Assembly (NCBI GenBank): GCA_020161015.1
Contig: JAIUOT010000056.1
Location: 1 to 64,000 of the forward strand
DNA length: 64,000 bases
Direction: 5' to 3'
Source: Actinomycetota bacterium
Lineage (GTDB): Bacteria; Actinomycetota; Actinomycetes; Propionibacteriales; Propionibacteriaceae
The first letter of the stretch is position 1. Each line of letters begins with the position of its first letter. Below, one piece after another: positions 8,791 to 21,187 of this stretch. The notes below the pieces were generated by a model. The model was not told the DNA's origin and searched no databases. It worked only from the letters and a program-made list of their open reading frames with translations. Made by a program: the position numbers and the translations under genes.

Positions 8791-9342
8791 TCAGGCGTTG
8801 CCGCGGAACTCGACCGGCTGCCGGCCGGCGCCCGCCGAGACCGTGAGCGCCACCGGCGAACGCTTGTCGAGGGCGACCAGGTAGACGAAGCTCGCCGTCG
8901 CGGTCACCCCCGGCGCGAGCTCCGGGGGGAAGGCCGTGGCCGGGGCGCCGGTGACCCGGCTCGCCGCTCCTCCGGCCGAGTCGATCAGGGTCGTCTCGAG
9001 CTGCTCTGTCCGGTACGCCGCGCCGCTGTCGTTGCGGAGCGAGAGGACGAACACCAGGGCCGGGCCCTTGCCCTCGGTGGGCACGGTGCTTTCCACGTCC
9101 TTGGCCGTCACGGACACCACCCTCAGCCGCAGCCCGCCGAGATCGCCCTCCTCCGACAGTCCGACCGTCCTCGGCGCGGGCGGGGTGACCGCAGGGACGG
9201 TCTGGGTGACCGAGCCGGGTGTCGGGCGGCCGTCCGTGCCGGCCGGGCCGGTGCAGCCGGCCAGCGTGGCGAGCGCGACGACGAGCCCGGTGGCGAGCCC
9301 CGTCCGGACCGCGACCCGGCGGGAGGAGGCGGCCGCGCTCAC
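8791..9342 (-). CDS. Secreted lipoprotein with DUF4352-like Ig fold
   Basis: A 183-residue predicted lipoprotein. The N-terminus is basic, then hydrophobic, and ends in lipobox LATLAGC, so a lipid anchor at about Cys28 on the outer face of the membrane is expected. A short Pro/Thr linker is followed by a domain of about 110 residues that looks all-beta (LRLRVVSVTAKDVES, ALVFVLSLRNDS, PGVTATASFVYLV), resembling DUF4352-type lipoproteins. The GTG start at 9342 makes a GTGA overlap with the stop of the giant PKD/LamG gene, so the two are translationally coupled. It may help anchor or fold that protein; this is inference from gene order. Confidence 0.8.
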   Translation of the reverse strand: MSAAASSRRVAVRTGLATGLVVALATLAGCTGPAGTDGRPTPGSVTQTVPAVTPPAPRTVGLSEEGDLGGLRLRVVSVTAKDVESTVPTEGKGPALVFVLSLRNDSGAAYRTEQLETTLIDSAGGAASRVTGAPATAFPPELAPGVTATASFVYLVALDKRSPVALTVSAGAGRQPVEFRGNA

Positions 9343-18487: not shown

Positions 18488-21187
18488 TCAGGCGGTCCTG
18501 GTCACCGCCAGGTTGTCCGTTCCGACGGTGATCGGCGCGTTGGTGGTGGACGCCTCCACCCAGGCCGCGACCCCCACCGCGCCGGCGTCCTGGAGGGTCG
18601 GCTGGGTGTCGGTCGTGGTCAGCAGCCAGCTGGAGGGCTGGGTCTGGCCGGTGACCCACAGCCGGGTCTTCAGGGTGGTGGTGCCGGTGCCGGTCGCCTG
18701 GAAGCCGAGGGTGAGCCGGGTGCCCGGGCTGTAGGTGAGGCCTGAGACCGTCGCCGCACCGAGGGTGTACTCGGTCGACCCGACCACCTTGGCCAGCACG
18801 ACGCTGACCGCGCCGGTCTTGGCGAACCGCACCTTCGCGCGGTAGGCACCGTCGGTGCCCTTGCGGAGGTCGAGGTTCACGTGCGCCTGCCCGCCGGCCG
18901 GCACCTTGTCGAGACTGAGCTCGACGGTCCCGTCGACGTCCCGGCCGCTCGTGGAGCCGAGCATCGCGGAGCGGGTGCTGGACGCGGCCAGCGCGAGTTT
19001 GCCGACGCCGCCGGAGACCGTGAAGCCGGTCCCGCTGGTCGTCCAGGCGCCGCCGGTGGTCGCCGACCCCCAGCCGGAGGCGACGGCCGTCCCGAAGTCC
19101 GCGGACACGATCTTCGTCGTGCCGGCGGCCGGGGAGGTCGCGGTCGGCGTGGGCGTCGGCGAAGCGGTGGTCGGCGTCGGGGTCGGGGTGGGCGTCGGGG
19201 TCGGCGTGGACGTGCCGCCGCCGGCGGCCGTCACGGTCTGACCGTCGAGGGTGATCACGCCGCGGTCTCCGGTGTTGACGCCGCTGGCGAACAGCACGGC
19301 GATGTCGGAGGGCAGGGCCTTCGCCGACCCGTCCGCCCCGCTGCCGGAGACCACCCGGTAGTCACCGGTGGAGGTGCTCGCCAGGTAGGGGTTGGTCGTC
19401 GCGTTGGACAGCTGGCTGCTCTGCTCCAGCTTCTTGGCGGTCTGGAAGGCCGGCACGGAGGAGTAGATCTCCGTGGTCGCGCCGGACTTCTCGTTCCACG
19501 ACGTCCAGTACTTCGAGTCGCCGGTCGGGGCCTGGTAGTAGCTGTTGTTCGACATCAGCGACATCGCCTGGGTGGCGGTCGTGTTGCCGGCGTACTTCAG
19601 GTCACCGCCGGTGATCATCACGTGACGGCCGTTGTCGGAGCTGCCGCCGGTGATGATGTTGTTCACGATCTCGGTGCCCACGGTGTCCGGACCGATCCGG
19701 GCGGCAGCGAAGCCACCGGTGTTGGTGGTGGCCTGGCGGGGGTCGTCGTACACGCCGATAGCCGCCCGGTTGTTCACCATCGTGTTGTTGTAGACGCGGA
19801 CGTGCGCCGAGCCGAGGTACATCCCGTACCCGCCGCCGTAGGCCGGGCTGTTCCAGCCGTTGTCGACGAAGAGGTTGGACGCCACGATCGCCTTGTCGCT
19901 GATCTCGTACACCAGGCCGTGGCGGGCGTTGCCCTTCACCACGTTTCCGTACATGGTCAGGTTCTTGCAGCCGAGGTCGCACCAGAAGCCGGACGCGCGC
20001 TGGCCGCCGTTGTTGCTCAGGCTGCTGTAGCGCACGGTCATGCCGTAGGTGCCGGTGAGCTTGGCCGCGGCCGCGCCACAGGCCCAGCTGCAGTTCACGC
20101 CGTAGGCGTCGGCGTTGTTCCCGTCGAGCCGCGAGTACTCGATCGTCACGTTGTCGGAGGGGACCGTCGAGCGGGCCGACCAGTTGCCGTCGTAGTTGAG
20201 GCCGTTGGCGCCGTTGGAGGACAGCACCGAGCGGCGGAACGTGAGGTTGGTGGTCTGCCACGCCTGCACTCCCGCGCCCGCGTTCTCGACGAACGCCGAG
20301 TTCTCGAACAGCACGTTGGAGCCGCCGTTGACGAGCACGGCGCTCGCCGTCGCGTTGCGGATCTGGTTGCTGGCGTACCGGCGGAACCCGATGCCCTTGA
20401 GGGCGAAGTTGGTCGGCTTGTACAGCGCCATGCCCTGGGCGAACTTCGTCAGCTCGACCGAGTTCCCGGCCGGGTCGAAGCCGATGTGCATGACCTTGTT
20501 GGCCCAGTCGTAGTAGAAGCTGTTCGCCGTCATGGCCGAGAGCGACGCGGCCTGGGTGAGCTGGGTGCCGTTGCGGAACACCATCTGCGGGTCGCCGAGC
20601 GAGGCCCCGGCGCCGAGGGCGTCGGAGTAGCTGCAGGGCCCGTCTGCGGCCTGGTTCGACGGCGCGCGCGTGTAGTACTTCTGGGCGCACAGGTCGGGGG
20701 TCGACCAGCTCACCTTGTAGTCGGTCGAGGAGACCTTGGTCCAGTTGGTCACCGGCTCGGTGCCGTCGAACCACACGGTCTCGCCGGGGTAGTTCTGGAT
20801 CGTGACGCCGGAGGGGACCGGCGTGAAGTAGTAGGTGCCGCCGATGTTGTAGCCGCTCGTGGCGGACGCGCCCTGGCGGTAGACGCCGCCGCGGACGACG
20901 ACCGTGCCGCCGGCCTTCACGGTGGTCATCGCCTTGTAGAGGGTCTTGAACGGGGCGGCGAGCGTGCCGGCGTTGGTGTCGGACCCGTTGGTCGCGACGT
21001 AGAGGGCGCCCGCGGGCGCGGCGTAGCTGGGGGCCAGCGCCGCTGCGGCACTGCCGGGGACGGACGAGGAGAGCGCGAGGGTGGCCGCGGAACTCTCCTG
21101 CGTCGGGACGATCGCCGAGACCAGGCCTGTCACCAGGCCCGCCACCACGGCGGTGAAGACCCGCGAGCGGGTACGGAACACATGCAT
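18488..21187 (-). CDS. Secreted right-handed beta-helix protein with Thr-Pro linker and C-terminal domain X
   Basis: An 899-residue exported protein. A basic N-terminus and hydrophobic core (VVAGLVTGLVSAIV) form a signal peptide of about 35 residues. ALYVATNGSDTNAGT and APFKTLYKAM open a DUF1565/pectate-lyase-like right-handed beta-helix spanning about residues 58-630, with Asn-rich turns such as YSSLSNNGGQ and VYNNTMVNNR. A Thr-Pro repeat linker (about 654-685) leads to a beta-sandwich domain of about 205 residues (SADFGTAVASGWG, GGAW) that matches the two X domains of the giant protein. Beta-helix proteins often bind or cleave acidic polysaccharides; no catalytic residues can be assigned. 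The ATG at 21187 has GGAG six bases upstream. Its neighbour 21322-23256 is a tandem paralogue lacking linker and domain X. Confidence 0.85.
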   Translation of the reverse strand: MHVFRTRSRVFTAVVAGLVTGLVSAIVPTQESSAATLALSSSVPGSAAAALAPSYAAPAGALYVATNGSDTNAGTLAAPFKTLYKAMTTVKAGGTVVVRGGVYRQGASATSGYNIGGTYYFTPVPSGVTIQNYPGETVWFDGTEPVTNWTKVSSTDYKVSWSTPDLCAQKYYTRAPSNQAADGPCSYSDALGAGASLGDPQMVFRNGTQLTQAASLSAMTANSFYYDWANKVMHIGFDPAGNSVELTKFAQGMALYKPTNFALKGIGFRRYASNQIRNATASAVLVNGGSNVLFENSAFVENAGAGVQAWQTTNLTFRRSVLSSNGANGLNYDGNWSARSTVPSDNVTIEYSRLDGNNADAYGVNCSWACGAAAAKLTGTYGMTVRYSSLSNNGGQRASGFWCDLGCKNLTMYGNVVKGNARHGLVYEISDKAIVASNLFVDNGWNSPAYGGGYGMYLGSAHVRVYNNTMVNNRAAIGVYDDPRQATTNTGGFAAARIGPDTVGTEIVNNIITGGSSDNGRHVMITGGDLKYAGNTTATQAMSLMSNNSYYQAPTGDSKYWTSWNEKSGATTEIYSSVPAFQTAKKLEQSSQLSNATTNPYLASTSTGDYRVVSGSGADGSAKALPSDIAVLFASGVNTGDRGVITLDGQTVTAAGGGTSTPTPTPTPTPTPTTASPTPTPTATSPAAGTTKIVSADFGTAVASGWGSATTGGAWTTSGTGFTVSGGVGKLALAASSTRSAMLGSTSGRDVDGTVELSLDKVPAGGQAHVNLDLRKGTDGAYRAKVRFAKTGAVSVVLAKVVGSTEYTLGAATVSGLTYSPGTRLTLGFQATGTGTTTLKTRLWVTGQTQPSSWLLTTTDTQPTLQDAGAVGVAAWVEASTTNAPITVGTDNLAVTRTA

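What the first reader, a model, noticed from the sequence alone, without database searches (positions are those of the whole stretch)
9339..21187. A roughly 200-residue C-terminal domain X shared by the giant protein (twice) and a beta-helix protein
Each copy starts D-F-(x)n-GWG/RWG...GGAW, has a middle region ending TTGAxR or KTGAVS, continues with Y(x)GxRLxxxF/L and ends GAxGxRxYTGSG-like or GAVGVAAW. In the beta-helix protein it follows a Thr-Pro linker, and in the giant protein the copies close PKD arrays, so it behaves as a mobile attachment module. Possible roles are binding the locus's polysaccharide or the cell wall.
Basis: partly seen in the sequence, partly recalled or inferred. Interest (0 to 1): 0.58.

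Follow-up and report, generated by a model that had tools for sequence, protein, structure and literature searches.

The report
Lectin-like domain on actinobacterial surface proteins
The repeated 200-residue piece is real: it is an uncatalogued, sugar-binding-type (lectin-like) domain that many actinobacteria put on the end of long secreted proteins, often next to genes that make surface sugars, and that their viruses also carry on their tails, probably to grip sugars on the cell surface.

Summary
Observation confirmed. Domain X (about 205 aa) occurs three times: X1 (window 10980-11588, internal), X2 (9342-9968) and X3 (18491-19114), the last two C-terminal, 34-55% identical. No Pfam, NCBIfam or PDB sequence match, but AlphaFold2 gives confident models for X2 and X3 (pLDDT 96 and 94), both concanavalin A-like jelly rolls. 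The nearest solved structures are the fructan-binding module CBM66 and actinophage receptor-binding domains (TM4 gp23, Douge gp20 and gp23); the Douge ones bind mycobacterial surface glycans. Sequence relatives abound in Actinomycetota and in tail proteins of Streptomyces phages. In bacteria X almost always follows PKD domains; the giant protein belongs to a widespread propeller-LamG-PKD-X family with conserved neighbours, a DUF4352-like lipoprotein and a beta-helix protein. X lies within 30 kb of a sugar-initiating transferase in 16 of 39 X-positive genomes (1.5 expected), but propellers without X show the same linkage, so it belongs to the propeller; PKD-X is an optional arm. Best reading: a stalked lectin gripping an envelope or matrix glycan, working like Vibrio Bap1/RbmC. 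Ligand unproven.

The parts
21322..23256 (-). beta-helix paralogue without domain X (644 aa)
   Evidence: Pfam Beta_helix 5e-18; 60% identical over 609 aa to the X3-bearing protein
18488..21187 (-). beta-helix protein carrying X3 (899 aa)
   Evidence: ORF; Pfam Beta_helix 4e-14
19115..19207 (-). Thr-Pro-rich linker between the beta-helix and X3 (about aa 661-691)
   Evidence: sequence
18491..19114 (-). domain X3
   Evidence: AlphaFold2 pLDDT 93.6; concanavalin A-like fold
9339..18332 (-). giant secreted protein (2997 aa): propeller - fn3-like - four LamG matches with 13 PKD matches - X1 - PKD - X2
   Evidence: ORF; Pfam
16977..18131 (-). N-terminal propeller-type domain of the giant protein (aa 68-452), conserved across Actinomycetota
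   Evidence: Rax2 and DUF5122 propeller Pfam matches
11607..13379 (-). PKD array that precedes X1
   Evidence: PF18911 placements
10980..11588 (-). domain X1 (internal)
9984..10961 (-). four PKD domains between X1 and X2
   Evidence: PF18911 placements
9342..9968 (-). domain X2 (C-terminal)
   Evidence: AlphaFold2 pLDDT 96; fold
8791..9342 (-). DUF4352-like lipoprotein (183 aa, LAGC lipobox); its GTG overlaps the giant's TGA (GTGA)
   Evidence: homologues in 51 of 78 X loci
7690..8772 (+). polysaccharide pyruvyl transferase (context)
   Evidence: PF04230 1e-24
5112..6635 (+). Wzx-type polysaccharide flippase (context)
   Evidence: PF13440 3e-72
48822..52175 (+). two initiating sugar-phosphate transferases, PF02397 (48822-49385 and 51612-52175; context)

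Best explanation
Domain X is an unnamed family of concanavalin A-like lectin domains. In actinobacteria it is the sugar-gripping tip of an optional PKD-stalk arm on secreted surface proteins. In the window's giant protein, the N-terminal propeller plus LamG core most likely sits in or on the exopolysaccharide made by the neighbouring genes (or on the cell, with the co-encoded lipoprotein). The PKD arrays hold X away from it, and X binds a glycan of the actinobacterial envelope or matrix, so the protein ties polysaccharide matrix and cells together. X3 gives the beta-helix protein the same grip through a Thr-Pro linker. Shown: the family, the fold, the architecture, the conserved neighbours and the phage-tail relatives. 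Inferred: that X binds glycan, which glycan, and which end of the protein faces the cell.
For: Fold: AlphaFold2 pLDDT 96.0 (X2) and 93.6 (X3). Both models match CBM66 best (Z 19.1, rmsd 2.2-2.3 A over 160-161 residues), with actinophage receptor-binding domains close behind (TM4 gp23 Z 18.3-18.4; Douge gp20 residues 692-877 Z 18.1-18.3; Douge gp23 Z 17.4-17.6), then legume-type lectins, ERGIC-53 and polysaccharide lyases. Recombinant Douge CFP-tip-CTD (gp20) and BppU-CBM (gp23) bind M. smegmatis and LAM/AM and alpha-glucan fragments (PMC13033339, section 14 read). Sequence relatives lie in Streptomyces phage tail proteins; in phage Yara X is in the gene after the tape measure. Display: X is the last recognised domain in 105 of 108 bacterial X ORFs and directly follows a PKD in 118 of 141 copies. 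Locus: X within 30 kb of PF02397 in 16 of 39 X-positive genomes, expected 1.48, maximum 9 in 20,000 placements. Conserved partners: lipoprotein in 51 of 78 and beta-helix in 20 of 78 X loci, none in 80 viral loci. No sortase motif or membrane-helix-like tail in 75 closed X ORFs.
Against: A concanavalin A-like fold does not prove sugar binding; the fold also serves protein-protein contacts. No ligand-binding residues were mapped. Phage and bacterial X fall on two sides of the tree apart from one row (quick tree), so a shared ligand is not implied by recent exchange. The polysaccharide-locus link belongs to the propeller as much as to X; 23 of 39 X-positive genomes show no linkage within 30 kb (some are fragmented). 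The window genome's own C53 copies lie outside a recognisable polysaccharide locus. Which end faces the cell is unknown.
Confidence: 0.5

Rival explanations
1. X is a non-covalent cell-wall anchor: it binds the organism's own wall glycan and holds the propeller and LamG domains outward, replacing a sortase signal.
For: X is C-terminal in 59 of 75 closed ORFs plus 11 tandem cases, with no sortase or membrane tail; it is attached to unrelated N-terminal parts within one genome; phage tails carry relatives.
Against: X-less members of the same propeller family exist (9 of 33 strong hits) and end in or soon after fn3 or LamG with no substitute anchor; the giant has a co-encoded lipoprotein that could provide a membrane link.
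Confidence: 0.25
2. X is a substrate-targeting carbohydrate-binding module for enzymes acting on external polysaccharide.
For: Best structural match is CBM66; some carriers have phosphoesterase, metallophosphoesterase or GSDH domains.
Against: No glycoside hydrolase or lyase catalytic domain listed at E 1e-5 in the 32 X-proteins or 9 others scanned; the common carriers are propeller/LamG/PKD proteins.
Confidence: 0.12
3. X is itself an enzyme (GH16- or PL7-like; these share the fold).
For: GH16-type glucanases and alginate lyases are among the fold neighbours.
Against: A loose GH16 E-x-D-x-E pattern is found in 1 of 135 X sequences; no enzyme family matches by sequence.
Confidence: 0.04
4. X is a structural spacer or protein-protein module with no sugar ligand.
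For: It sits beside PKD and LamG domains that can be spacers; phage tail proteins need assembly domains.
Against: Nearest solved structures are dominated by glycan binders; X is terminal, which spacers need not be.
Confidence: 0.15

Closest known systems
CBM66 (Bacillus subtilis; PDB 4b1m, 4azz)
   Same: same jelly-roll fold, Z 19.1, rmsd 2.2-2.3 A over 160-161 residues
   Different: 12-16% identity; not found by sequence search with X2 or a family profile; CBM66 is a fructan-binding part of an enzyme (recalled)
Actinophage receptor-binding domains: TM4 gp23 C-terminal domain (9n6a), Douge gp20 tip (8zdp) and gp23 CBM (8zdo)
   Same: same fold (Z 17.4-18.4), displayed on tails of mycobacteriophages; the two Douge domains bind mycobacterial surface glycans (PMC13033339)
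   Different: 11-15% identity; X has sequence relatives in Streptomyces phages but here is a cellular protein module
Laminin_G_3 / LamG domains (PF13385)
   Same: same superfamily fold; four copies occur in the same giant protein
   Different: X matches no LamG Pfam model up to E 10
Vibrio cholerae Bap1 and RbmC biofilm adhesins
   Same: secreted multi-domain proteins with a propeller and separate adhesive domains; their propeller binds the matrix exopolysaccharide (PMC10102183 abstract)
   Different: other adhesive domains (beta-prism lectins, search listing and recall) instead of X; Gram-negative; homology of the propellers was not tested
phrog_24476 ('phosphodiesterase')
   Same: its C-terminal part (829-1034 of 1066) matches X1 and X2 at E about 1e-14, and 35 of 36 viral X ORFs match the family
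   Different: X is only the C-terminal segment of that family, so the label need not describe X

Membership tests
Concanavalin A-like lectin/glucanase superfamily (fold) | two-sheet jelly-roll beta-sandwich | tested here: met
   AlphaFold2 models of X2 and X3; VIA Z up to 19.1 against many members
Concanavalin A-like lectin/glucanase superfamily (fold) | carbohydrate binding | not testable with these tools
   needs binding assays
Pfam LamG families / any Pfam or NCBIfam family | sequence match to a family model above its cut-off | tested here: not met
   no credible match for X1-X3; 34 members scanned against Pfam, best E 0.0024 in one member only
CBM66 | fold | tested here: met
   Z 19.1
CBM66 | detectable sequence kinship to CBM66 entries | tested here: not met
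   phmmer and profile search of PDB list no CBM66 chain
CBM66 | fructan binding | not testable with these tools
   needs binding assay
GH16 / PL7 enzymes | GH16 E-x-D-x-E catalytic motif | tested here: not met
   loose pattern in 1 of 135 X sequences; PL7 motif not tested
Sortase-anchored surface proteins | C-terminal LPXTG-like motif and membrane helix | tested here: not met
   none in 75 closed X ORFs
Actinophage tail receptor-binding domain | encoded in phage tail genes | tested here: met
   for sequence relatives, not for the window copies: phage Yara gene after tape measure; minor tail proteins
Bap1/RbmC-type matrix adhesin | propeller plus separate adhesive or lectin-type domains, encoded near exopolysaccharide genes | tested here: met
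   architecture and linkage
Bap1/RbmC-type matrix adhesin | homologous propeller | not tested
   no comparison made
Bap1/RbmC-type matrix adhesin | propeller binds the matrix polysaccharide | not testable with these tools
   needs binding assay

The most novel reading that the evidence does not exclude
Actinobacteria and their phages share one uncatalogued lectin family that reads the same class of envelope glycan. The lipoprotein plus propeller-LamG-PKD-X (and beta-helix) gene set is an undescribed Gram-positive matrix-adhesion system, analogous to Vibrio Bap1/RbmC, in which the propeller holds the exopolysaccharide and the PKD-X arm ties it to cell-surface glycan, the target that phages also use to attach.
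Probability: 0.28. Interest if true: 0.72.

Novelty: new variant of a known kind. Interest (0 to 1): 0.5.

Why it matters
It gives a structural identity to an unlabelled piece of very large, common actinobacterial proteins that annotation stops at 'PKD/LamG domain-containing'. It defines a conserved gene neighbourhood for exopolysaccharide-linked surface proteins in a phylum whose biofilm matrix proteins are little known. And because phage tails carry the same family, one binding experiment could identify both a bacterial matrix ligand and a phage receptor class.

Tried and rejected
Pyruvylated-glycan (SLH-like) ligand: the window has a pyruvyl transferase next to the giant, but PF04230 has no match in 17 of 39 X-positive genomes and lies near X only in G000, G219 and (25 kb, weak X) G361; dropped.

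X as the cause of the polysaccharide-locus link: rejected because X-less propellers are linked as often (55 of the 62 rows at E 1e-60 or better were used, 7 dropped because their genomes were not searched for PF02397; the X / no-X labels were assigned by me by contig and frame length; the 17 genomes were chosen by me from the propeller list).

Recent bacteria-phage exchange of X: not seen; 57 of 58 viral rows sit apart from bacterial rows (161 sequences reduced to 135 by an 85% identity filter, 4 loci L067, L113, L163, L170 left out beforehand; the careful tree did not finish, the quick tree is quoted).

PDB sequence hits 5eo7/5eo8 (E 0.11) and 3leh (E 1.1) are chance-level. LEA_2 and other Pfam matches are isolated and weak.

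Literature: searches listed no paper that, from title and start of abstract, describes domain X or this gene set; that is all the absence claim rests on.

Limits: domain and gene detection in scripts used small home-made HMMs (three lipoproteins, 17 propellers, 12 PKD repeats, 3 LamG) on stop-to-stop frames; counts would shift with other cut-offs. Genome-contig and viral hits are the best 80 of 194 and of 122 relatives, so architecture counts describe the closest relatives.
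Full report
WHAT IS THERE. X1 is aa 2249-2451 and X2 aa 2789-2997 of the 2997-residue giant protein (window 10980-11588 and 9342-9968, minus strand); X3 is aa 692-899 of the 899-residue beta-helix protein (18491-19114). They align over their whole length, X1/X2 55% and X3/X1 34% identical. X1 is internal, between two PKD arrays; X2 and X3 end their proteins. The genome holds three further copies: two in one ORF on contig C53 and one on C52, so four proteins carry six copies.

NOT A CATALOGUED FAMILY. X1-X3 have no credible match in Pfam (E up to 10) or NCBIfam; 34 family members scanned one by one give no shared Pfam family beyond LEA_2 at E 0.17 in two. 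PDB sequence searches with X2 and with a 19-row profile give nothing credible. The one library match is the C-terminal fifth of phrog_24476, a phage family labelled phosphodiesterase (E about 1e-14 for X1 and X2).

FOLD. AlphaFold2 with an alignment of 34 natural relatives gives X2 a mean pLDDT of 96.0 and pTM 0.91; X3, modelled separately with 26 rows, gives 93.6 and 0.90. Both are all-beta. The second-look structural aligner places both on the concanavalin A-like jelly roll: CBM66 of Bacillus subtilis Z 19.1 (rmsd 2.2-2.3 A, 160-161 residues), then, within 1 Z and so tied, the receptor-binding domain of mycobacteriophage TM4 gp23 (18.3, 18.4) and Douge gp20 residues 692-877 (18.1, 18.3), lower Douge gp23 CBM (17.4, 17.6), and ERGIC-53, legume lectins, GH43 accessory domains and alginate lyases. 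In the viral structure library the best match is the Streptomyces phage KimJongPhill minor tail protein, TM-score 0.87 on the query.

WHAT THE STRUCTURAL NEIGHBOURS DO. For phage Douge, recombinant CFP-tip-CTD (construct from gp20) and BppU-CBM (gp23) bind the surface of M. smegmatis but not E. coli, and LAM/AM and alpha-glucan fragments on an array (PMC13033339, section 14 read; gp assignments from passages). I take gp20 residues 692-877 to be the CFP-tip-CTD. The same paper finds unrelated Ig-like domains binding similarly, so the array result is not specific to this fold.

WHO HAS IT. One scan of 84,980 species genomes found 194 relatives; the best 80 make 78 loci, 76 in records titled as Actinomycetota or members of it and two from one Chloroflexi MAG. 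In an even sample of the window's class, 33 of 344 genomes match; in the genus 7 of 30. So it is patchy, and often multi-copy. IMG/VR gave 122 relatives, best 80 kept; GenBank phages gave 9 records, eight of them Streptomyces phages. In Streptomyces phage Yara X lies in the gene right after the tape measure. In a quick tree of 135 sequences viral and bacterial X lie on two sides with one exception (L160); X1 pairs with one C53 copy (73% identity), X2 with the other (62%), X3 with C52 (52%). The X1-PKD-X2 arrangement was thus probably copied as a unit between the giant and the C53 protein (inference).

ARCHITECTURE. Of 108 bacterial X ORFs in the fetched loci, 97 have PKD domains and 80 the N-terminal propeller; X is the last recognised domain in 105; of 141 X copies 118 directly follow a PKD. 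Pfam on 32 X-proteins from 32 of the 78 loci: PKD_4 in 32, Laminin_G_3 in 29, Rax2-type propeller in 20, Phosphoesterase in 1. Other carriers have metallophosphoesterase, phosphoesterase or GSDH domains or a beta-helix (4 of the 20 beta-helix ORFs found). None of 81 viral X ORFs has propeller, LamG or PKD by these profiles. No sortase motif or membrane-helix-like tail ends any of 75 closed X ORFs; 59 end with X, and of the other 16, read by eye, 11 have a further X behind the matched one, 3 end in a phosphoesterase-like domain, 1 in a PKD and 1 in a 52-residue tail.

GENE NEIGHBOURS. The giant's TGA overlaps the GTG of a small lipoprotein gene (GTGA, 8791-9342) that is weakly DUF4352-like. The DUF4352 match recurs in 10 of 10 lipoproteins tested, one above the curated cut-off (C52, 29.5 against 25.9 bits), window copy E 0.02. 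A profile of three such lipoproteins finds one in 51 of 78 bacterial X loci and 0 of 80 viral loci; in 30 loci it overlaps or lies within 300 bp on the same strand and in 9 on the opposite strand. Homologues of the window's beta-helix proteins lie in 20 of 78 X loci. In the window the beta-helix pair (60% identical over 609 aa) shows X3 with its Thr-Pro linker present in one and absent in the other. The order on the minus strand is beta-helix, beta-helix-X3, giant, lipoprotein.

POLYSACCHARIDE LINK. The window carries a flippase, a pyruvyl transferase, glycosyltransferases and two PF02397 initiating transferases. In all 39 X-positive genomes, X lies within 30 kb of PF02397 in 16; random placement gives 1.48, at most 9 in 20,000 trials. 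However, propeller proteins without X are linked equally: within 20 kb, 14 of 26 with X and 14 of 29 without. Among 33 strong propeller hits (E below 1e-110) 24 share the ORF with X and 9 do not; the 9 end in or soon after fn3 or LamG and have neither PKD nor X. In the fetched loci 17 propeller ORFs lack X and only one of them has PKD, in a locus with a masked stretch, L033. So PKD and X come and go together, as an arm added to a polysaccharide-linked core.

HOW IT LIKELY WORKS. The core is probably held by the locus's polysaccharide or by the lipoprotein; the PKD array is a stalk; X is a lectin at its end. The closest functional model is Vibrio cholerae Bap1 and RbmC, whose propeller binds the matrix exopolysaccharide while other domains face the environment (PMC10102183, abstract). 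The phage relatives point to a glycan on actinobacterial surfaces as ligand. The fold, architecture and linkage are shown; sugar binding, its target and the orientation are inferred.

WHY NOT MORE. The fold is common and glycan binding is a frequent but not the only use; I did not map binding residues; the phage and bacterial subfamilies are separate. I therefore rate X a new family within a known kind of domain, with a moderately interesting and readily testable setting.

Noticed in passing
window 8791-9342 and L195:8174-8800, L197:14557-15267: A DUF4352-like lipoprotein gene is a conserved partner of propeller-PKD-X genes; it overlaps the giant gene by 4 bases downstream in the window and, by mechanical ORF ends, by 4 bases upstream in G001.
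   Followed up: partly
window 16977-18131: The N-terminal propeller defines a wider actinobacterial family (99 of 344 class genomes at E 1e-20) with nested architectures: propeller, propeller-LamG, propeller-LamG-PKD-X.
   Followed up: partly
window 18488-23256: Tandem beta-helix paralogues, 60% identical, whose homologues lie in 20 of 78 X loci; function (lyase, epimerase or structural) not worked out.
   Followed up: partly
L068, L075, L078 (Arthrobacter): Three propeller-X ORFs continue after X into a phosphoesterase-like domain; L068 is presumably the one Phosphoesterase match.
   Followed up: no
L196 (G000:C53), about 8795-11881: A second protein with X-PKD-PKD-X lies outside a recognisable polysaccharide locus; its N-terminal half has no Pfam match at E 1e-5.
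   Followed up: no
phrog_24476: The PHROG label 'phosphodiesterase' is hit by 35 of 36 viral X ORFs scanned, in the member shown through X alone, so the label may mislead annotation of tail proteins.
   Followed up: partly
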